A DNA stretch of 64,000 nucleotides from assembly GCF_004364775.1 (NCBI RefSeq), contig NZ_SOAL01000008.1:124001-188000 (forward strand), read 5' to 3'. The notes beneath the pieces were generated by a model, which saw only the letters and a list, made by a program, of their open reading frames with translations, had not been told where the DNA came from and made no database searches. How positions within the stretch are numbered: position 1 is the stretch's first letter; the number at the start of each line of letters is the position of its first letter. Both the position numbers and the translations under genes were made by a program. Origin of the DNA: Comamonas sp. JUb58. GTDB taxonomy: Bacteria; Pseudomonadota; Gammaproteobacteria; Burkholderiales; Burkholderiaceae_C. Below, one piece after another: positions 34,317-41,880 of this stretch.

Positions 34317-34569
34317 GACGAACTCCTTTCTTCGATGGCTCCATGATCATGCTGCCCCTGGGGATCTGGTGTAGGCGTCGTCTGAGGAATGTCAACAGAT
34401 TTCAGCTGACTGGCTGTAGTGCTTTTGCTCACAGCAGGCCGCGGAGTCAGTGAAGAAGGTGTTTGGAAGATGCGTTGCCCGCAAGGAGGCAAGCAGGGCC
34501 CTGCCTGAATACAGCCCAGGCAAGGCGGATGGCACTAGTGAACGGGTGAGAGATGACAGCGCTATTGGC

Positions 34570-34812
34570 TTAGCGCCCGAGGAGGACCAGGCGGCCCTCA
34601 ACCTCTATGGCGTTGTGCGCTAGCGATCGCTGCAGCGGCAAGCCCAGGACTTTTTGCTGCCAATCGGGCAGGCCGGGCGACCAGGAGGTCCCCAAGGTCG
34701 GGTCATTGCGTAATTCTTGCAGTCCATCTTCCGTCAGGTGCAAGCATGACGGTGTCTGGCCGGATTGAAGGACTTGGAGGAATGCGGATTCAATCATTTC
34801 GTACAAGCTCAT
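34570..34812 (-). CDS. 80-residue hypothetical protein
   Basis: A small soluble frame, MSLYEMIESAFLQVLQSG and TPSCLHLTEDGLQELRNDP, ending VEGRLVLLGR. The composition is protein-like (amphipathic helix, then a strand-rich end), but no strong Shine-Dalgarno is seen. Family unknown. Between it and the 57-residue gene (34317-34569) I see nothing supported. Confidence 0.45.
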   Translation of the reverse strand: MSLYEMIESAFLQVLQSGQTPSCLHLTEDGLQELRNDPTLGTSWSPGLPDWQQKVLGLPLQRSLAHNAIEVEGRLVLLGR

Positions 34813-35029
34813 TGGGATCGTTGGCTAGAGGGTGATGTGTCCTGTGACTAGTGCGGGAGAGATATTAGCGCAGCTTGGGCCGGCCGCAAACAGACGGCAG
34901 CGGGAGAGCTGGGGAATAGCTCTGGCTGCGCAATGGAGGTGCGATGGGACTGTGGAGCAGGAGGCTATTGCGGCCCTGATAATGCTGCGCTGCGAGCCAG
35001 CGGCACACGGCTGAGCGGCGGACAGCCTG

Positions 35030-35701
35030 TCAGCAAATACCTGGCTGGGACGGCTGCCGAATGGCCCCGGCAAAGCCATGCTCCACACGGGAGTAGGGCC
35101 GGCCACTGGTCAGTACCCGGGGCAAGGCGCTCCAGGCAATCTGTGCGCCCAGGGCAGCCAGGCGATCGACCAGTGCCTGGTCTTCGCCGCATTCTATGGC
35201 ATCAAAGCCGCCCGCCTGTTGGTAGCAGAGGGCTGAGAGTCCCAGGTTGGCGCCATGCACATGGCGGTGGCCATCGCGGTCCTGGTAGCTGGATTCAAAA
35301 CGCAGGCGCGCTGCTTGGGCATCGGCGCCGTGGGCCTCCCAGCTGTCGACACCGACCGTGCCGCAGACCACATCGGCGCCCAGCGACAGCTGCACCGCCA
35401 GCCAATCGGGTGCCACGCGGGTGTCCGCATCGGTAAAGGCCAGCCAGCGGGCCTGGTGCTGCAGCAAATGGCGGGCACCGGCGGCGCGGGCTCTGCCTAC
35501 ATTGCGGGCATTGACGGCCAGGGTCACAAAAGGCCATTGCCGGGCGATGGCGGCGCTGCCATCGCTGCAGCTGTCCAGCACCACGACGACCTTGATTTCT
35601 TCGGTCGCCAAATCGGGGTGCAGTGTGGCCATGGCAACGCTTTCCAGGCAGGCGTCGATCAGGTCTTCTTCGTTGTGTGCGGGTATGCAGATGCCAATCA
35701 T
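35030..35701 (-). CDS. family 2 glycosyltransferase
   Basis: A 223-residue GT-A glycosyltransferase, starting MIGICIPAHNEED as the family does. The donor-binding region VVVVLDSCSDGSAAIA, the DxD motif at residues 91-93 (FTDADTR) and an acidic acceptor-site motif CGEDQALVDRL are present. No membrane segments are seen, so it acts in the cytoplasm or on the inner leaflet. It is the last gene of the trehalose operon, 7 bp after the methyltransferase gene. The sugar and acceptor are unknown. Confidence 0.88.
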   Translation of the reverse strand: MIGICIPAHNEEDLIDACLESVAMATLHPDLATEEIKVVVVLDSCSDGSAAIARQWPFVTLAVNARNVGRARAAGARHLLQHQARWLAFTDADTRVAPDWLAVQLSLGADVVCGTVGVDSWEAHGADAQAARLRFESSYQDRDGHRHVHGANLGLSALCYQQAGGFDAIECGEDQALVDRLAALGAQIAWSALPRVLTSGRPYSRVEHGFAGAIRQPSQPGIC

Positions 35702-35708
35702 CGTGGGC

Positions 35709-36287
35709 TCACAGTCTTTCCCAAACTTCCAGCAAGAAATCGGTCTCGCGGTGCTCCACCACGGTTTTGAGCGCCGCGCTGGCGCCAATCTGCGCATGGA
35801 TGGTGTCGGCGGTTTGCTGCAGGTCGGGCGCCTGGTGGCGCCAGTGGCACATCAGCCAATGGCCGCCGGGAGCGAGGGAGGACAGGCAGCGCTCGCTGAA
35901 CAGCGCCAGGTCAGCATCGCCCAGGTAATAGGCCAGCTCGGAGACGACCAGCAGGTCAAAGCCGCCGGCGGGCACCTCGGGCCATTCCTGCGGCAGTTGC
36001 AGCTTTTGCAGGTGCAACTGGCGTCGGTCCTCGCGCTGGATGCGAGCATTGCACAGCAGCACGGCCGATTCGGCAAAGTCGGCGGCGATCAGCTGGTCGC
36101 AGCGCTCCAGCAGTGCCAAGGTGGTTTCGCCATTGCCGCAGCCGGGCTCAAAGCCGTAGCGGTAATGCTCGCGCGGCAACGAGGCCAGCAGCACCTGGCG
36201 CTTGCGCCGCTCGTACCAGGCGGTCTTGACGGCCCAGGGGTCGGGGGAATTTTGGTAGAGCTGTTCAAAGTGTTGGCGTTGGTTCAT
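35709..36287 (-). CDS. NodS-like SAM-dependent methyltransferase
   Basis: A 192-residue class I methyltransferase. The start MNQRQHFEQLYQNSPDPW, the SAM motif FEPGCGNGETTL at residues 46-57 and FDLLVVSELAYYLGD resemble NodS, the N-methyltransferase of Nod-factor synthesis that acts on a deacetylated glucosamine. The preceding gene encodes a PIG-L deacetylase, whose stop overlaps this start (ATGA). Deacetylation followed by N-methylation of an amino sugar is therefore a reasonable hypothesis. Confidence 0.85.
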   Translation of the reverse strand: MNQRQHFEQLYQNSPDPWAVKTAWYERRKRQVLLASLPREHYRYGFEPGCGNGETTLALLERCDQLIAADFAESAVLLCNARIQREDRRQLHLQKLQLPQEWPEVPAGGFDLLVVSELAYYLGDADLALFSERCLSSLAPGGHWLMCHWRHQAPDLQQTADTIHAQIGASAALKTVVEHRETDFLLEVWERL

Positions 36288-37042
36288 CGCAATATCACCT
36301 CGAAGTTGCGCAGCAGGCGCGCCGTGGCCCAGCGGGGCAGGATCGCCGGTCTGCCGGTCGAGGGGTCGGGCAGCAGCTGGCTGCGAAAGCAGGACAGCGC
36401 CAGGCATTTGCGGTCCAGCTGGTCGGCGCTCAGCGGCATGCGCACGGCCTGCTGCCATGGCACGCGCTGGTCGCCGGGGCTGGCCCAGTGCCAGGTCCAG
36501 ATCGGCACTTCAAACAAGCGGCTGCCCACATCGGTCGTGGCGGCGGCGCAGGCCTCGCCGGTGGCCTCGTGGTCGGGGTGGCCGTCATAGCGCCAGGGGC
36601 AGAAGACGGCATCCGTCGGGCGCAGCAGTTGCTGCAGGCGCGATTCGAGCTGGGGCTGATGATCCTGCACCTGGCCGTCGGGGATGCGCAGGTGGATGAT
36701 CTGGCTACCGGGGCAGAGCAGGGCCAGCGCCTGGGCGCTTTCGCGCTCGCGGGCCTGGGCCAGTTGGTCGGGCGTCCACAGGCGCGAGCCGGGGTGGCTG
36801 GCCTCGCCCGAGGTGACGGCAATCACTGTGCAGGGCAGGGCGTTCGCCTCGCAGTGCTGCATGATCGCCGCAGTGGCCAGGATCTCGTCATCGGGATGGG
36901 GCGAGACGATCACGACCCGCTCGCAGCCTTGCAGCAGCTCCTCAGCCGGCGTGCTGCCCAAGGGCGCTTGGGCCAGCCAGGATTGCCACTGCAATTCGGG
37001 CGTGCCCTCGCCTTCGATATGGCGGGATTTCAGAGCTTCCAT
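36284..37042 (-). CDS. PIG-L family deacetylase
   Basis: A 252-residue zinc-dependent de-N-acetylase. The metal-binding HPDDE motif is at residues 49-53 (VIVSPHPDDEILA) and the second cluster DGHPDHEATG lies further on. The family removes acetyl groups from GlcNAc-containing lipids or thiols (PIG-L, MshB, BshB, LmbE). It overlaps the acyl-CoA dehydrogenase-like gene by 13 bp upstream and the methyltransferase by 4 bp downstream. The substrate is unknown. Confidence 0.9.
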   Translation of the reverse strand: MEALKSRHIEGEGTPELQWQSWLAQAPLGSTPAEELLQGCERVVIVSPHPDDEILATAAIMQHCEANALPCTVIAVTSGEASHPGSRLWTPDQLAQARERESAQALALLCPGSQIIHLRIPDGQVQDHQPQLESRLQQLLRPTDAVFCPWRYDGHPDHEATGEACAAATTDVGSRLFEVPIWTWHWASPGDQRVPWQQAVRMPLSADQLDRKCLALSCFRSQLLPDPSTGRPAILPRWATARLLRNFEVILR

Positions 37043-38058
37043 GGTGCGTTGTTCTCCTGTTCGGCGATGGCCTGCCCCAGGGCGGCCAGATCGCGTTCTG
37101 CGTGGCTTTGACGAATAAAAATAGGCAGGTCGGCCAGCAGCAGGGCCAGCGACCGGTCTTTGCAAAAAGGCCCAGGGCCGAGCGCGCGCGGCACATGCTG
37201 CAGCACTTGCTGGGCCGCCGCCTCGGCGGCCAGGCGGGTACGGTTCACCTCTCGGGTCCAGGGCTGCTCGGGCTGGGCATCAATATGGGCGGCCGTTGCG
37301 CGCAGCAGCGCTGCCGTGGCGGACAGCGCCACATCCACCGCGCCCAGGTGTGCCAAGGCATGGGGTTCGGCATGCTGGCGGCAGGCGCGCAGCAGCTGGC
37401 CGGCAATGCGGGCACTGGCGCCATACCAGCAGGCCGCAATGCCTGCGCCGCCATGCTGAAAACCGGGCCGGCTCAGGTAAGCGCCCGGGCGGCCCACCAG
37501 GGTGGCGCTGGCGTTGTTCAGGTCTACATCCACACTGCCACTGTCAGCCATGCCCACGGCCTGCCAGCCCTCATCGCTGACCTGCACCGCCGGTTGCAGC
37601 AGGTTGACTGCCACCAGGCAGCGCTCGGTATCGGACAACCAGGCCGTCACCAGCGCATGGTCCACACTGTGCGCGCCCGAGCACCAGGCCTTGGTGCCGC
37701 TCAACGTCACTTTGCTGCCGGGGGCCAGACCATCGCTGGCGCTGGTGGGTCTGGCCTGCACCCGGTTGCCCGGCGGCTCAGCACCCCAAACGGCCCAGGT
37801 TCTGGCGGCTGCCGGCGCCGGGGTGTCCAGCTCGGCCAAAATCGCCAGCGCATCGGTATGGCCCTCAAACAGCTTGACGAGGCTCAGGTTGCTGGCAGCC
37901 ACCGCTGCCAGTGCCCGCCAGCGCGCCAGGGTCTGGCCCTGGCCAGGCAGGGGCAGTTGGTCCAGGCCCTGCGCCACGAGGGCCCGCAAGGTCTCGCCGG
38001 GCTGCTGCAGCGCGGAGTCGCTCAGAAAGGCTTCCAGTTCCATAGTGGCGTTCATCAT
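37030..38058 (-). CDS. divergent acyl-CoA dehydrogenase-like flavoprotein
   Basis: A 342-residue protein with an acyl-CoA dehydrogenase outline: a middle beta domain containing VTLSGTKAWCSGAHSVDHAL (compare the usual GxKxxxSGA) and a helical C-terminal domain. It is shorter than typical members, and I cannot identify a catalytic Glu with confidence. It starts immediately after the otsA stop and overlaps the PIG-L gene, so all seven genes are tightly linked. It probably oxidises or desaturates an unusual substrate, or is catalytically altered. Confidence 0.75.
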   Translation of the reverse strand: MMNATMELEAFLSDSALQQPGETLRALVAQGLDQLPLPGQGQTLARWRALAAVAASNLSLVKLFEGHTDALAILAELDTPAPAAARTWAVWGAEPPGNRVQARPTSASDGLAPGSKVTLSGTKAWCSGAHSVDHALVTAWLSDTERCLVAVNLLQPAVQVSDEGWQAVGMADSGSVDVDLNNASATLVGRPGAYLSRPGFQHGGAGIAACWYGASARIAGQLLRACRQHAEPHALAHLGAVDVALSATAALLRATAAHIDAQPEQPWTREVNRTRLAAEAAAQQVLQHVPRALGPGPFCKDRSLALLLADLPIFIRQSHAERDLAALGQAIAEQENNAPWKL

Positions 38059-39603
38059 TCATCGGCCCATGCGTTGGGCTGTAGCGGCGGGGCGCGGCGC
38101 AGCGCCGCCACCCGTCACCACATGCAGATAGGGAAAGCTGCCATCCCGCGTCGGGCGGGTCATCGGCAGGTCGGCACCAGCGGCAGGGACGCGGCTGAGC
38201 GCCGGCACGGAGAAGCGCGGCTTGCGCTGCACTGCCGGTTGGCACTGGTCCAGCGCATGCAAAAAGCGCTGGCACCACCAGTGCACGTCCTCGGTCTGGA
38301 TGCGGGCCAGCAGCTTTTGGTGGCGCTGGATGCGCTCGGCCAGCGGCATCTGCAGCGCCTGGTCAATGCTGTCGGCGGTGCTGTGCGCGTCATACGGGTT
38401 CACCAAGAGCGCCTCTTGCAGCTGCTCGGCCGCGCCAGCAAAGCGCGACAGCACCAGCACCCCGGGGTCGGCCGGGTCCTGGGCGGCAATGAATTCCTTG
38501 GCCACCAGGTTCATGCCATCGCGCAGCGGCGTGACCAGGCCCACAGCAGCTGCACGGCACAAGCCCGCCAGATGCGCACGCGTCAGCACCTGGTGGATGT
38601 AGCGCACCGGCATCCAGTCCAGCTCCCCAAAATCGCCATTGATGGCGCCGCACAGCGATTCAAACTCGCTGCGGATATCGGCATAGGCCTGCAGGTGCTC
38701 GCGGGTGGGCGAGCCAATCTGTACCAGGGTGGCACTGCGCCGGTGCTCAGGGTGGCGCTCCAGCAGATCACGAAAGGCGTGGATGCGCTCGGGCAGGCCC
38801 TTGGAGTAGTCGAGCCGGTCAATGCCCACCACCAGCCGGCGTTGGCCATGCTCCTGCGCCATCGTGGCTTGCACCTGCTGGGCGGGGGGCGTGTCCGTCA
38901 CCGCGGCAAAGGCATGCGCGTCAATGCCAATCGGAAAAACCTCGCAGCGCGCTTGCTGGCCATGGGCGCGGTAGTGGTGGCGGTGGCTGATGCGGCCATC
39001 GGGCTGTGCCAGCACATAGCTTTCAAAATGCTGCAGGTCTTGCCGGCTTTGCAGGCCCACCAGGTCAAAAGCCATCAAGGCCTGCATCAGCGCCTTGTGC
39101 TGCGGCACGGCGCTGAGGGCGACCGAAGGGGGAAAGGGGATGTGCAGAAAAAAGCCAATGCGCTGCTGGCAGCCCAGCGCCCGCAGCTCGGCCGCCAGCG
39201 CCATCAGATGGTAGTCATGCACCCAGATGACGTCATCCTCTTGCAGCAAGGGCAGCAACTGCTGCGCAAACTGGCGGTTCACGCGTTGGTAGCCGTCGTA
39301 AAAGCTGGGATCGAAGGCAGCCAGGTCCAGGCGGTTGTGAAACACCGGCCAGAGCAGGTTATTGCAAAAGCCGTTGTAGTAGCTGTCGTGGTCGCGGCGC
39401 TCCAAGTCCGTCGTTGCGACGGTCACAGCACCCCATTCGCGCACGGAGGGCTGCGTCGGAGATTGATCTGTCATTTTGCCGCCCCAGCCAAACCAGAGGC
39501 CACCATGGCGCTGCAACGCCTCTTCCAGCGCAATGGCCAAACCGCCGGGCGCGGCATCCTGCGGATCGGCCACCCGGTTGGAGACAACAACCAGGCGGCT
39601 CAT
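38059..39603 (-). CDS. otsA: trehalose-6-phosphate synthase OtsA
   Basis: A 514-residue GT20 glycosyltransferase that joins UDP-glucose and glucose-6-phosphate. The landmarks are MSRLVVVSNRVADPQDAAPG with GGLAIALE at the N-terminus, VWVHDYHLMALAAELR, GFFLHIPFPP, GIDRLDYSKGLPERIHAF and VTPLRDGMNLVAKEFIAAQ. The C-terminus carries a Pro/Arg-rich extension after the catalytic domain. It overlaps otsB by 4 bp. Trehalose protects against desiccation and osmotic shock, fitting the surrounding stress genes. Confidence 0.95.
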   Translation of the reverse strand: MSRLVVVSNRVADPQDAAPGGLAIALEEALQRHGGLWFGWGGKMTDQSPTQPSVREWGAVTVATTDLERRDHDSYYNGFCNNLLWPVFHNRLDLAAFDPSFYDGYQRVNRQFAQQLLPLLQEDDVIWVHDYHLMALAAELRALGCQQRIGFFLHIPFPPSVALSAVPQHKALMQALMAFDLVGLQSRQDLQHFESYVLAQPDGRISHRHHYRAHGQQARCEVFPIGIDAHAFAAVTDTPPAQQVQATMAQEHGQRRLVVGIDRLDYSKGLPERIHAFRDLLERHPEHRRSATLVQIGSPTREHLQAYADIRSEFESLCGAINGDFGELDWMPVRYIHQVLTRAHLAGLCRAAAVGLVTPLRDGMNLVAKEFIAAQDPADPGVLVLSRFAGAAEQLQEALLVNPYDAHSTADSIDQALQMPLAERIQRHQKLLARIQTEDVHWWCQRFLHALDQCQPAVQRKPRFSVPALSRVPAAGADLPMTRPTRDGSFPYLHVVTGGGAAPRPAATAQRMGR

Positions 39604-40379
39604 GGCTGCACCTCCGCCGGCTGGCGCAGGTTGTGGAGCGTGCGCAGCTGCGTGCAGGCCGCCTGCAGCCAGTGGTAGACGGCATCGACACCTGCGAGCC
39701 GGTGGCTGGCTGCGCTGGCGCCCGGGCCTACCTTGATGGCGACGCCGCGCTGGGCCAGCACGGCGGCAAAGCCGCTTTCGTCGCTGATGTCATCGCCCAG
39801 GAAGAAGGGCGTGCGCCCGGCAAAAGGTGCCTCCTGCAGAAAGGCCTGGATCGCGCGGCCCTTGCTGGCGCCCACCGGCAGCATCTCCAGCACCCGCTTG
39901 CCGCGCAGCAAGGTCCACTGCGGGCGGTGGGCCAACATGGCTTGCAGGCTGCGCAGGCACAGCGCTTCCAGCGATGGATCGCGGCGGTAGTGCAGCGCGA
40001 CGCCGCTTTGCTTGGGCTCCACATACAGGGCGGGGTGGGCCTGGGCGAGCTGCTCACAGGCCTCGACCACCGCCGAGATATCCCCCGGTGCATCGCCGCA
40101 TTGCTGGCCCCTGGCATCACGGCGCTGCGCGCCATGGGCGCCGGCGCACGGGATTTGCAAAGGCTGCAGGTAATGGTCCAGCACGGCAATCTCTCGGCCG
40201 GAGATGATGGCGACTGCGCCGCCCAGCAAGGCCTGCAGCTCGCGCAGCAGCGGTACCAACTGGGCAGGCACGACGATGCTGTCCGGGGTAGGCGCCATCG
40301 GCACTAGGCTGCCATCAAAGTCCAGGAAAAGCGCCGCATCGGCGGGCAGATGCGGCGGCAGGGGCGCGGCGGTCAACAT
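39600..40379 (-). CDS. otsB: trehalose-6-phosphate phosphatase OtsB
   Basis: A 259-residue HAD-superfamily phosphatase with the nucleophile motif LDFDGSL (Asp20, acid/base Asp22), the middle motif AIISGREIAVLDHYL, GAHGAQRRD and the C-terminal FFLGDDISDESGFAAV with metal-binding Asp residues. It converts trehalose-6-phosphate to trehalose. Its start overlaps the stop of the small acidic protein gene, and its stop overlaps the otsA start. Confidence 0.95.
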   Translation of the reverse strand: MLTAAPLPPHLPADAALFLDFDGSLVPMAPTPDSIVVPAQLVPLLRELQALLGGAVAIISGREIAVLDHYLQPLQIPCAGAHGAQRRDARGQQCGDAPGDISAVVEACEQLAQAHPALYVEPKQSGVALHYRRDPSLEALCLRSLQAMLAHRPQWTLLRGKRVLEMLPVGASKGRAIQAFLQEAPFAGRTPFFLGDDISDESGFAAVLAQRGVAIKVGPGASAASHRLAGVDAVYHWLQAACTQLRTLHNLRQPAEVQP

Positions 40380-40624
40380 CAGGGTTCCAGCGGTTCGGGG
40401 CTGACCACGCGCTCAGACTCCGGGTCTTGCGGGATGTCGGGCTCGGTGCTGGGGGAGAACGGGGGGTGGGGCGGGTCATCGCCGGGCTCGGGGGTCAAAG
40501 GCTCCTGCTCGGGATAGGGTTCGCCGACCGGGTCCATGCTTTCGTCTTCGGGATAGTTGGGCTGGGTCGCAGGCCGGGAATCTGTGGGAGTTTCGGGCTG
40601 GGTATCTGGCTTGCTGGTAGTCAT
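40379..40624 (-). CDS. small acidic Pro/Glu-rich disordered protein
   Basis: An 81-residue protein starting MTTSKPDTQPETPTDS, almost entirely Pro, Glu, Asp, Ser and Thr, with no hydrophobic core and so probably disordered. GGAG lies just before the ATG. It overlaps the otsB start and is the first gene of the operon. Acidic, disordered small proteins of this kind occur in stress operons; a role is not known. Confidence 0.6.
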   Translation of the reverse strand: MTTSKPDTQPETPTDSRPATQPNYPEDESMDPVGEPYPEQEPLTPEPGDDPPHPPFSPSTEPDIPQDPESERVVSPEPLEP

Positions 40625-40875
40625 GGGGTGCTCCTCGGTCGTATGCCTTCTAGGTTGGCCGCAGCGGCGCCCGGGGTCTGTAGGATTTCTGCGCCCGCGT
40701 GTGGAGTCATCCAAGCGAGTTGGCATTCAGCGCTTGCGCACGTGCTGGTTTGCGAGGCTTCTTGTCAGACCGCTCTGGCAAGCAGGTGGTAAGAACTTCC
40801 CATCGAGGATTGCCTTTTCCTCTCAGCCGGTCGGCTGCCCGACGCGCACACTGTCCGCATACCTAGGAGGCCGGC

Positions 40876-41880
40876 ATGACAGAGCAGCAAGGCAATGCCC
40901 CGACATCGACACGCACCATCTGGAAAGGCGCGATCAGCTTTGGGCTGGTGCATGTGCCCATAGGGCTGTACACGGCCACGCGCGATTCGGGCATCGACTT
41001 TGACTGGCTCGACAAGCGCTCGATGGAGCCAGTGGGCTACAAGCGTATCAACAAGCGCACCGGCAAGGAGATCGCCAGCAGCGACATCGTCAAAGGCGTG
41101 GAATACGAAGAGGGCCGCTATGTGATCCTGAGCCAGGAGGAGATCAGCGCCGCCTTCCCCAAAACCACGCAGACCATCGAGATTGAGGCCTTTGTCGACG
41201 CCGATGACATTCCGCTGATCTACCTGGAGCGGCCCTACTACACGGCGCCGCTCAAGCGCGGAGAAAAAGTCTATGCCTTGCTGCGTGAGGCGCTGCGCAA
41301 GACCAACAAGGTTGGCGTGGCCAAGGTCGTCATCCAGACCAAGCAGCACCTAGCCGTGCTGGTGCCCTGCGGCCGGGCCCTGGTGCTGAACCTGCTGCGC
41401 TGGGGCGGCGATATCCGCTCGTTCGAGCAGCTCAACCTGCCGCCCCAATCGGCCAAGGCCGCTGGCATCAGCAGTGCCGAGATGGACATGGCCGTCGCCT
41501 TGATCGAAGACAAGGCCCAGGCCTGGAATGCCGATGACTTCAGGAACTCCTTCTCCGAAGAGATCCACAAGCTGATCGATGCCAAGGTCAAATCAGGCGA
41601 GGTGGAAGAGGTGGTGCAGGCGCCCAAGGAATCGCCGGTGTCGGGTGGCGCGGAGATCCTGGATTTGACCGCCTTGCTCAAACGCAGCCTGGCGGGCGGC
41701 GCCAAGGCGGCCGATGCCAAGCCCGCTGCGCGAAAGCCCAAGGCCGCGCCGGCCAAGACCAAGGCCAGCGCCCCCGCCAAAGCGGCAGCCGCAACGGCAA
41801 AACCCAAGGCCAAGCCCAAGCCAGCCGCCAAATCCGCCAGCGCCCGCAAGACGGCGCCCGCCAAGCGGCGTGCCGCTTAG
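40876..41880 (+). CDS. ku: non-homologous end joining protein Ku
   Basis: A 334-residue bacterial Ku. AGGAGG lies 6 bases before the ATG. The core (about 12-265) has TIWKGAISFGLVHVPIGLY, KRINKRTGKEIASSDIVKG, YVILSQEEISAAFPKTTQTIEI and YLERPYY. The tail from about residue 275 is a Lys/Ala/Pro-rich, histone-H1-like extension, which in other bacterial Ku proteins binds DNA and aids LigD recruitment. It binds DNA ends as a dimer. It is divergent from the trehalose operon across 250 bp and is followed by ligD after 24 bp. Confidence 0.96.
   Translation: MTEQQGNAPTSTRTIWKGAISFGLVHVPIGLYTATRDSGIDFDWLDKRSMEPVGYKRINKRTGKEIASSDIVKGVEYEEGRYVILSQEEISAAFPKTTQTIEIEAFVDADDIPLIYLERPYYTAPLKRGEKVYALLREALRKTNKVGVAKVVIQTKQHLAVLVPCGRALVLNLLRWGGDIRSFEQLNLPPQSAKAAGISSAEMDMAVALIEDKAQAWNADDFRNSFSEEIHKLIDAKVKSGEVEEVVQAPKESPVSGGAEILDLTALLKRSLAGGAKAADAKPAARKPKAAPAKTKASAPAKAAAATAKPKAKPKPAAKSASARKTAPAKRRAA

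What the first reader, a model, noticed from the sequence alone, without database searches (positions are those of the whole stretch)
35030..40624. Seven-gene operon linking trehalose synthesis to an unknown deacetylase-methyltransferase-glycosyltransferase pathway
otsB and otsA are tightly coupled (overlaps of 1-13 bp or near-zero gaps) to an acyl-CoA dehydrogenase-like protein, a PIG-L de-N-acetylase, a NodS-like methyltransferase and a GT2. Deacetylation then N-methylation of an amino sugar, plus a lipid-type oxidation, suggests a modified glycolipid, a sugar-based thiol or an unusual trehalose derivative. I know of no defined product for this set.
Basis: inference. Interest (0 to 1): 0.72.

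Follow-up and report, generated by a model that had tools for sequence, protein, structure and literature searches.

The report
Trehalose-linked amino-sugar modification operon
Beside the genes that make the stress sugar trehalose, this bacterium carries four coupled enzymes that probably build a modified amino sugar; the same set recurs with trehalose genes in other bacteria, and I found no known product for it.

Summary
Observation confirmed. Seven minus-strand genes (40624-35030) are spaced from a 13-bp overlap to a 7-bp gap: small acidic ORF, otsB, otsA, ACAD-like, PIG-L, NodS-like methyltransferase, GT2. The last four form a recurring module. Of 397 sampled genomes of the phylum, 33 have the ACAD-like gene; nearby lie the methyltransferase in 32, PIG-L in 28 and GT2 in 27. 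Within the genus, otsA and the ACAD-like gene occur in the same 15 of 53 genomes, always side by side; in five the module sits between otsA and otsB. In Pseudomonas it directly follows glgX of the treYZ operon. OtsA or TreY occurs in 31 of 33 carriers against 117 of 364 others. A published A. baumannii table shows what appears to be the module and unlinked otsBA falling together. The 'lipid oxidation' reading is unlikely: the ACAD-like protein is closest to flavin monooxygenases (DszC, MsuC; also KijD3), though folds alone do not separate these cleanly from dehydrogenases. Best reading: a stress pathway that adds an N-acetyl sugar to an acceptor, deacetylates, methylates and oxygenates it. Product and acceptor are unknown; shared stress regulation alone may explain the trehalose link.

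The parts
40379..40624 (-). small acidic, proline-rich, very hydrophilic ORF (81 aa), first gene of the operon
   Evidence: P 28%, E+D 25%, GRAVY -1.5, net charge -17; no Pfam/NCBIfam match; tblastn matches of 80-92% in L010, L011, L180, L181, L182 and 37% in L012
39600..40379 (-). otsB, trehalose-6-phosphate phosphatase
   Evidence: TIGR00685 135.1 bits over the 68.05 cut-off
38059..39603 (-). otsA, trehalose-6-phosphate synthase
   Evidence: PF00982 E 4.3e-122; TIGR02400 561.7 bits, just under the 564.85 cut-off
37030..38058 (-). ACAD-fold protein, predicted flavin-dependent monooxygenase (probably not an acyl-CoA dehydrogenase)
   Evidence: profile A2 against PDB: TdsC 2.9e-11, MsuC 4.4e-9, DszC 4.9e-9, DnmZ 1.1e-5, KijD3 3.4e-5, with entries named dehydrogenase at 6.4e-8 and 2.4e-7 between; AF2 pLDDT 92.6; Foldseek TdsC 1.0e-11, a 'putative acyl-CoA dehydrogenase' 1.1e-11, KijD3 2.9e-11, butyryl- and isovaleryl-CoA dehydrogenases 8.2e-11; CSGA (126-129) and H319 invariant in 36 of 36
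36284..37042 (-). PIG-L (LmbE-like) zinc de-N-acetylase
   Evidence: PF02585 E 1.1e-25; H49, D51, D52, H155, D157, H158 invariant in 37 of 37; nearest solved: diacetylchitobiose deacetylase 5e-18
35709..36287 (-). NodS-like SAM-dependent methyltransferase
   Evidence: PF05401 25.8 over cut-off 24; PDB 4isc, named only 'Methyltransferase', 1.7e-71; NodS 3ofj 8.1e-26
35030..35701 (-). short GT-A-type family 2 glycosyltransferase (223 aa)
   Evidence: PF00535 E 6.5e-17; D92 and D94 invariant in 29 of 29; AF2 pLDDT 92.4; Foldseek WrtF, PcManGT, TarS, TarP
40625..40875 (.). divergent intergenic region between the operon and Ku; holds ATCCTACAGACC, identical in six Comamonas sequences
   Evidence: no sigma-70-type promoter match in 34500-41000; resemblance to a sigma-S -10 element is recalled, not tested
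40876..41880 (+). Ku (end-joining) gene, divergent neighbour, context only
   Evidence: ORF; Ku label recognised by eye; Ku/LigD homologues also beside the module in L144, L145 and L149
41905..44400 (+). LigD (ATP-dependent DNA ligase D), context only
   Evidence: ORF; label recognised by eye; homologues near the module

Best explanation
The four downstream genes encode one stress-related pathway that builds a modified amino-sugar glycoside and is expressed together with trehalose synthesis. Proposed steps: the GT2 transfers an N-acetylated sugar (probably GlcNAc) to a small acceptor; PIG-L removes the acetyl group; the NodS-like enzyme methylates the freed amine; the ACAD-fold enzyme, supplied with reduced flavin by a reductase encoded elsewhere, oxygenates the product, most plausibly at that nitrogen. 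The product would serve, with trehalose, in osmotic, desiccation or oxidative stress. Shown here: the operon-like arrangement, the recurrence of the set, the link with trehalose genes, and the enzyme families with key residues conserved. Inferred: substrates, order of steps, N-methylation and N-oxygenation, flavin use, and the protective role.
For: One module: ACAD-like gene in 33 of 397 genomes; within about 9 kb, methyltransferase in 32 of 33, PIG-L in 28, GT2 in 27. Of five genomes without a strong local PIG-L, three have one farther off or elsewhere at E <= 3.1e-32; of six without local GT2, five have one elsewhere at E <= 1e-10, two of them at 1.4e-91 or better. Trehalose link: OtsA or TreY in 31 of 33 carriers vs 117 of 364 others; the same 15 of 53 genomes in the genus; otsA-module-otsB in five genomes and, by independent annotation, on the C. 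endophytica record, which is one of the five; glgX-module junctions of -4 to +2 bp in 14 of 15 loci; apparent module and unlinked otsBA down together in A. baumannii (PMC5660220, passages). Chemistry: DszC-like monooxygenase with KijD3 and DnmZ among the matches, diacetylchitobiose-deacetylase-like PIG-L, NodS relative.
Against: No substrate or product is known. G484 has no PIG-L homologue at E <= 1e-5 and G540 only a weak one (3e-6), so deacetylation may not be universal; G392 lacks the GT2 and L155 a local methyltransferase. Four of the 80 PIG-L loci lack ACAD and methyltransferase, 18 lack GT2. Foldseek mixes monooxygenases and dehydrogenases: rank 3 is a 'putative acyl-CoA dehydrogenase'; hhalign scores the two groups alike (9.7e-13 vs 5.6e-11). 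The usual dehydrogenase Glu is absent, but 5 of 10 dehydrogenase-like proteins of the same genome lack it too, so this does not decide. DszC and MsuC oxidise sulfur, so N-oxygenation is only one option. No gene of the operon matched a flavin reductase. The ACICU genes were identified by annotation and order, not by sequence.
Confidence: 0.5

Rival explanations
1. Regulatory neighbourhood only: module and trehalose genes share a stress regulon (RpoS-, AlgU-, BfmR- or EcfG-like) and are clustered for that reason; the product is chemically unrelated to trehalose. This can hold together with the chemistry of the best explanation.
For: Catalase homologues near the module in 4 of 33 and Ku/LigD in 4 of 33 sampled genomes, the window's own counted; in the window Ku-LigD are divergent neighbours; ferritin-like, catalase, PA2169-family, CsbD or GlgE genes near it on five plasmid records read. 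The neighbouring trehalose route differs: OtsBA in Comamonas, TreYZ/GlgX in Pseudomonas. In 23 of 33 carriers no trehalose gene was found in the fetched stretch.
Against: In five genomes the module lies between otsA and otsB, with overlapping or 3-bp-spaced genes in the one read in full; otsA was not found without the module in 53 genomes of the genus. Neither excludes a purely regulatory link.
Confidence: 0.5
2. Trehalose, or trehalose-6-phosphate, is the acceptor: the GT2 adds HexNAc to it and the other enzymes convert this to an N-methylated, oxygenated aminosugar-trehalose trisaccharide.
For: otsA-module-otsB order; the same 15 of 53 genomes; OtsA or TreY in 31 of 33 carriers.
Against: Two carriers (G392, G446) match neither OtsA nor TreY; TreS was not searched in whole genomes. 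In 23 of 33 carriers no trehalose gene lies in the fetched stretch. Other acceptors are equally compatible.
Confidence: 0.2
3. The ACAD-fold enzyme acts on sulfur or carbon rather than nitrogen, and the methyltransferase makes an S- or O-methyl group, giving for example a sugar sulfoxide.
For: Best-scoring solved relatives TdsC/DszC and MsuC are sulfur monooxygenases; SfnB is the only NCBIfam match, far below cut-off.
Against: PIG-L points to an amine; NodS, an N-methyltransferase (recalled), is the second-best solved relative of the methyltransferase after an entry without stated function. Amino-sugar N-oxygenases KijD3 and DnmZ are also among the matches.
Confidence: 0.2
4. Genuine acyl-CoA dehydrogenase and a glycolipid.
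For: ACAD fold; Foldseek lists a putative acyl-CoA dehydrogenase third and butyryl-, isovaleryl- and isobutyryl-CoA dehydrogenases close behind. In one search an 'acyl-CoA dehydrogenase type 2 domain protein' (6.4e-8) and a 'cyclohexanecarboxyl-CoA dehydrogenase' (2.4e-7; titled ColB1, a cysteine dehydrogenase) rank above KijD3.
Against: The five best solved relatives are all monooxygenases; Pfam ACAD domains below cut-off; by ungapped continuation of the alignment S318, in L191 Gln, stands where many dehydrogenases have Glu, though 5 of 10 of the same genome's proteins also lack it. Beyond the four genes no gene cluster occurs in more than 29 of 81 stretches, so there is no constant lipid gene; most clusters were not annotated.
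Confidence: 0.08

Closest known systems
Nod factor backbone set NodC/NodB/NodS
   Same: GT2 glycosyltransferase, de-N-acetylase and NodS-type methyltransferase acting on an amino sugar (functions recalled); the methyltransferase here is a homologue of NodS (PDB 3ofj E 8.1e-26)
   Different: the deacetylase is PIG-L, not NodB; the GT2 is short; no acyltransferase in the operon; an ACAD-fold enzyme is added; NodS equivalog cut-off not met (42.8 vs 300 bits)
Bacillithiol/mycothiol pathways (BshA/BshB, MshA/MshB)
   Same: glycosyl transfer followed by PIG-L deacetylation (recalled)
   Different: GT2 here, GT4 there (recalled); BshB1, BshB2 and MshB cut-offs not met
Amino-sugar N-oxygenases KijD3, DnmZ, ORF36
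   Same: ACAD-fold flavin monooxygenases among the profile and fold matches
   Different: E-values 1e-5 to 1.6e-3 by sequence; those act on TDP-sugars of antibiotics (recalled); no gene cluster beyond the four recurs in more than 29 of 81 stretches, so no constant sugar-nucleotide gene
DszC / TdsC / MsuC sulfur monooxygenases
   Same: best profile matches; CSG[AS] motif aligns in all three, and W-x-x-[LI]GM in TdsC and DszC; His391 has a role in DszC's mechanism (PMC11134501, passages)
   Different: identity under 20% in the structural alignments
P. syringae treY/Z operon PSPTO3125-3130
   Same: gene set (glgA treZ malQ treY, PSPTO3129, glgX) like the one that precedes the module in Pseudomonas loci such as L074 and L081 (PMC8982409, passages)
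   Different: the paper's deletion stops at glgX; the words deacetylase, methyltransferase and acyl-CoA do not occur in its main text

Membership tests
acyl-CoA dehydrogenase | Pfam ACAD middle and C-terminal domains over gathering score | tested here: not met
   20.5 vs 33.3 and 18.3 vs 22.4 bits
acyl-CoA dehydrogenase | catalytic Glu in the C-terminal motif | tested here: inconclusive
   S318 stands there by ungapped continuation of the hhalign alignment, which ends just before; but of the ten own-genome proteins used for comparison only five have Glu there (YEGT, YEGA or LEGT), the others Asp, Gly or Ala
group D flavin monooxygenase (DszC/MsuC/KijD3) | closest solved relatives by sequence and fold | tested here: met
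   the five best are TdsC, MsuC and DszC entries; TdsC first, KijD3 fifth, but a putative acyl-CoA dehydrogenase third and dehydrogenases from rank 7
group D flavin monooxygenase (DszC/MsuC/KijD3) | Ser and His of the flavin site conserved | tested here: inconclusive
   S127 aligns with Ser163 of the DszC chain; H319 invariant but its match to His391 was not aligned; role of Ser163 recalled, His391 from PMC11134501
group D flavin monooxygenase (DszC/MsuC/KijD3) | uses reduced flavin and O2 | not testable with these tools
   needs the protein
SfnB | TIGR04022 cut-off | tested here: not met
   28.5 vs 430.9 bits
PIG-L de-N-acetylase | Pfam PF02585 and zinc-site motifs | tested here: met
   91.1 vs 28.2 bits; H49, P50, D51, D52, H155, D157, H158 invariant in 37 of 37
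BshB / MshB | NCBIfam cut-offs TIGR04001, TIGR04000, TIGR03445 | tested here: not met
   43.0 vs 182.5, 37.6 vs 195.25, 17.7 vs 224.35 bits
NodS | NF041650 equivalog cut-off | tested here: not met
   42.8 vs 300 bits; homology itself is met (PF05401 25.8 vs 24)
NodS | N-methylates a deacetylated amino sugar | not testable with these tools
   needs an assay
OtsA | TIGR02400 equivalog cut-off | tested here: inconclusive
   561.7 vs 564.85 bits, a hair under; PF00982 408.7 vs 32.5
OtsB | TIGR00685 equivalog cut-off | tested here: met
   135.1 vs 68.05 bits
arsenosugar / mycofactocin glycosyltransferases | TIGR04283 and TIGR03965 cut-offs | tested here: not met
   46.7 vs 182 and 38.6 vs 280 bits

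The most novel reading that the evidence does not exclude
A previously undescribed trehalose derivative: the GT2 puts GlcNAc on trehalose or trehalose-6-phosphate, PIG-L deacetylates it, the NodS-like enzyme N-methylates it and the flavin monooxygenase N-hydroxylates it, giving an N-methyl-hydroxylamino-sugar trehalose trisaccharide that acts as a stress solute and radical scavenger; spread across Pseudomonadota and into Actinomycetota, partly on plasmids.
Probability: 0.15. Interest if true: 0.85.

Novelty: new variant of a known kind. Interest (0 to 1): 0.6.

Why it matters
Trehalose is a standard desiccation and osmotic-stress sugar. A four-enzyme module that accompanies trehalose synthesis in a patchy but wide set of bacteria (33 of 397 genomes in one sample; 5 of 232 in another at a stricter cut-off) would imply a further stress metabolite, easy to overlook because the genes carry generic or misleading names. 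If true, the operon gives a direct way to find it: delete the four genes and compare metabolites under salt or drying.

Tried and rejected
Lipid oxidation by an acyl-CoA dehydrogenase: judged unlikely on domain scores and nearest relatives; the missing Glu supports this only weakly. Sugar thiol: BshB/MshB cut-offs missed. SfnB or arsenosugar family membership: cut-offs missed. Sigma-70 promoters in 34500-41000: none found, shuffles give 0.6; terminator-like sites 4 vs 3.6 expected, so uninformative. Independent origin of the two ots-module arrangements in the genus: the ACAD-like tree puts them apart (L136 is sister to the otsA-module-otsB group at 93/83), but one clade is not rejected (p-AU 0.26 on a reduced quick tree), so I do not claim two origins. 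Fisher p-values ignore relatedness and genome size and are descriptive only. Sampling limits: one search scored at most 5 candidates per genome and at most 9, so carriers may be missed; searches scored 2 and 3. Literature searches gave listings without a characterised pathway; of the papers listed I opened passages of three (PMC8982409, PMC5660220, PMC6240043) plus PMC11134501. By DOI I saw passages of PMC6181384 and PMC5967708; in the latter's main text 'trehalose' and 'acyl-CoA dehydrogenase' do not occur.

Rows dropped: in the junction count only loci with a clean ORF call were used (76, 77 and 60 pairs); GlgX junctions come from 17 loci where a GlgX ORF was chosen, two of them on the other strand; the tree used 53 of the 79 collected rows, one search used 34. 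In one search ten of the fifteen PF00441 loci and seven of the eight TIGR04022 loci were used. Alignments A2-A5 used 36, 37, 38 and 29 rows chosen from the loci. Pfam was run on 10 neighbour proteins only. TreZ, MalQ, GlgX, GlgB, TreS, KatE, EEP, Ku and LigD labels come from recognising the sequence, not from a family search; TreY positions in the 397-genome sample are confirmed by TIGR02401.
Full report
What is there. The window lies in a Comamonas genome: the nearest named relative of the PIG-L gene is Comamonas koreensis at 98%, and the window is G000:C8:124001-188000. Seven ORFs run on the minus strand from 40624 to 35030: a small acidic proline-rich ORF, otsB, otsA, an ACAD-like gene, PIG-L, a methyltransferase and a GT2. 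Junctions are -1, -4, 0, -13, -4 and +7 bp. Ku and LigD run the other way from 40876 (labels by eye).

The last four genes are a module. A genome scan with a PIG-L alignment returned the best 80 of 478 confirmed relatives, itself a capped list. By tblastn with the window proteins, 76 of 80 loci have the ACAD-like gene (partial at a contig end in L019) and the methyltransferase, and 62 the GT2; the four without ACAD and methyltransferase are L040, L046, L061 and L071. Median junctions are -4 bp in all three pairs. That set was chosen by PIG-L, so I took a sample of the phylum and searched it with the ACAD-like profile: 33 of 397 genomes hold it at E <= 1e-15, 23 in the same class (3.4e-64 or better) and 10 outside it (2.6e-39 to 7.2e-23). 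Within about 9 kb, 32 of 33 have the methyltransferase (not L155), 28 a PIG-L (not L131, L137, L147, L150; only a weak separate match in L129) and 27 the GT2 (not L128, L137, L138, L147, L150, L153). Some missing genes are elsewhere: PIG-L in 3 of 5 at E <= 3.1e-32 (in G392 about 12 kb off on the same contig), with G540 weak (3e-6) and G484 none; GT2 in 5 of 6, with G472 and G480 at 1.4e-91 or better, three weaker (5.8e-26 to 4.9e-22), and none in G392. An earlier class sample at a stricter cut-off gave 5 of 232, three of them strong including the window's own; of its two weaker ones, L092 carries all four genes at 28-31% identity and L093 only the ACAD-like match.

The link with trehalose. 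In the 397 genomes TreY occurs in 73 and OtsA in 133. Of the 33 carriers 25 have TreY, 26 OtsA, 31 at least one (not G392, G446); of the other 364 the counts are 48, 107 and 117. Relatedness and genome size are not corrected for. Ten of 33 carriers, in 6 of 21 genera, have a trehalose-synthesis gene within the fetched stretch; 23 do not. In many Pseudomonas loci the module follows treZ-malQ-treY-glgX (a TreY cluster in 29 of 81 stretches), and glgX, where measurable on the same strand, is 4 bp overlapping to 2 bp apart in 14 of 15 loci and 20 bp in the last. The same kind of upstream genes are the treY/Z operon PSPTO3125-3130 of P. syringae (PMC8982409, passages seen); that the module would be PSPTO3131 onward is my inference.

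Within the genus the link is complete in the genomes held. Of 53, 15 have OtsA and 15 the ACAD-like gene; they are the same 15, within 360 bp of each other in each (46 of the 53 are at least 90% complete and at most 5% contaminated). Nine further loci were read: four have otsB-otsA-module; five (G648, G653, G655, G663, G664) have otsA-ACAD-PIG-L-methyltransferase-GT2-otsB, the module lying inside the trehalose operon, with overlapping or 3-bp-spaced ORFs in L191. The annotated record of Comamonas endophytica shows the same order; from its length it is the record of G653, so it confirms rather than adds a case. A tree of the ACAD-like protein places the two arrangements apart, but one clade is not rejected (p-AU 0.26).

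Expression. In colistin-dependent A. baumannii mutants, ACICU_02432-02435 (glycosyltransferase, SAM-dependent methyltransferase, LmbE protein, putative acyl-CoA dehydrogenase-related protein, one operon) fall 31-45-fold and 42-62-fold in two strains, and the separately numbered T6P synthase and phosphatase (ACICU_00761-00762) fall 12-27-fold and 35-50-fold (PMC5660220, passages seen). That table lists only genes changed over 10-fold, many others change with them, and I identified the operon by names and order; PMC6240043 (passage) places the same set of names beside blsA. BfmR is said to raise trehalose-synthesis genes (PMC6181384, passages); whether it controls the module I could not see (PMC5967708, passages).

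What the enzymes are. The ACAD-like profile matches TdsC (2.9e-11), MsuC and DszC first; two entries named dehydrogenase follow (6.4e-8; 2.4e-7, titled ColB1), then DnmZ (1.1e-5), KijD3 (3.4e-5) and a mitochondrial acyl-CoA dehydrogenase (9.2e-5). Its model is confident (pLDDT 92.6); Foldseek puts TdsC first, a putative acyl-CoA dehydrogenase third, KijD3 fifth, and butyryl- and isovaleryl-CoA dehydrogenases from rank 7. The CSGA motif is shared with DszC and MsuC, and S127 aligns with Ser163 of the DszC chain; H319 is invariant in 36 of 36 and kept in the distant L191. Where five of ten dehydrogenase-like proteins of the same genome have YEGT, YEGA or LEGT, this family has RQSH; the other five have Asp, Gly or Ala there. 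The hhalign alignment ends just before this point, so matching S318 to the Glu is by ungapped continuation, and the two groups score alike (9.7e-13 and 5.6e-11). The monooxygenase reading therefore rests mainly and the CSGA motif. PIG-L keeps its zinc-site residues and is closest to archaeal diacetylchitobiose deacetylase (5e-18). The methyltransferase matches 4isc, named only 'Methyltransferase' (1.7e-71), and NodS (8.1e-26). The GT2 is a short enzyme whose structural neighbours include TarS and TarP, solved with UDP-GlcNAc, among many others.

Mechanism. I commit to this: GT2 transfers an N-acetyl sugar, PIG-L frees the amine, the NodS-like enzyme methylates it, and the flavin enzyme oxygenates it, in cells that are also making trehalose. 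The enzyme families and the linkage are shown; the substrates, the order and the nitrogen target are inferred. Whether trehalose is the acceptor is open: the otsA-module-otsB order argues for it, while the catalase, Ku/LigD, ferritin-like and CsbD neighbours show that shared stress regulation alone could explain much of the clustering.

Spread. tblastn finds the ACAD-like gene on 29 of 72,556 plasmid records, 19 of them Acinetobacter and three of Streptomyces, Kitasatospora and Embleya (15 of 29 listed). I read six of these; one had no annotation. On the A. ursingii record the order is module, MFS transporter, then otsA and otsB on the other strand. A Kitasatospora and a Pandoraea record have ACAD-like, PIG-L and methyltransferase in a row; a Cupriavidus record has ACAD-like, methyltransferase and glycosyltransferase, with a PIG-L a few kb off. 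So the module, or most of it, occurs on plasmids and in a second phylum.

Verdict. Observation confirmed and extended; interpretation partly right. A recurring, trehalose-coupled, four-enzyme set, made of known enzyme families in a combination for which I found no described product in the searches.

Noticed in passing
40379-40624: Small, very acidic proline-rich ORF (net charge -17) heads the otsBA operon and has relatives in Comamonas; it looks like a disordered hydrophilic stress protein.
   Followed up: partly
40625-40875: ATCCTACAGACC upstream of the small ORF is identical in six Comamonas sequences; may be a sigma-S-type -10 element (recalled).
   Followed up: no
L032, L041, L045, L051 and other Pseudomonas loci, about 12.2 kb: Many Pseudomonas loci carry a second PIG-L homologue (33-38%) just after the GT2; role unknown.
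   Followed up: no
L149, L155, L148 (distant carriers): In distant carriers the module sits among further glycosyltransferase-like genes and, in L155, a gene that looks like sucrose-phosphate synthase (labels by eye), suggesting a larger oligosaccharide there.
   Followed up: no
L209 (Cupriavidus basilensis plasmid): PIG-L lies beside a catalase gene a few kb from ACAD-methyltransferase-GT2, with a GlgE-type maltosyltransferase nearby.
   Followed up: no
L061, L071 (Caballeronia): PIG-L alone remains at the position where relatives have ACAD-PIG-L-methyltransferase: possible partial loss.
   Followed up: no
L206 (Kitasatospora fiedleri plasmid): Actinomycete version of the module near ferritin-like and spore photoproduct lyase genes; a gap after the methyltransferase may hide an unlisted GT2.
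   Followed up: no
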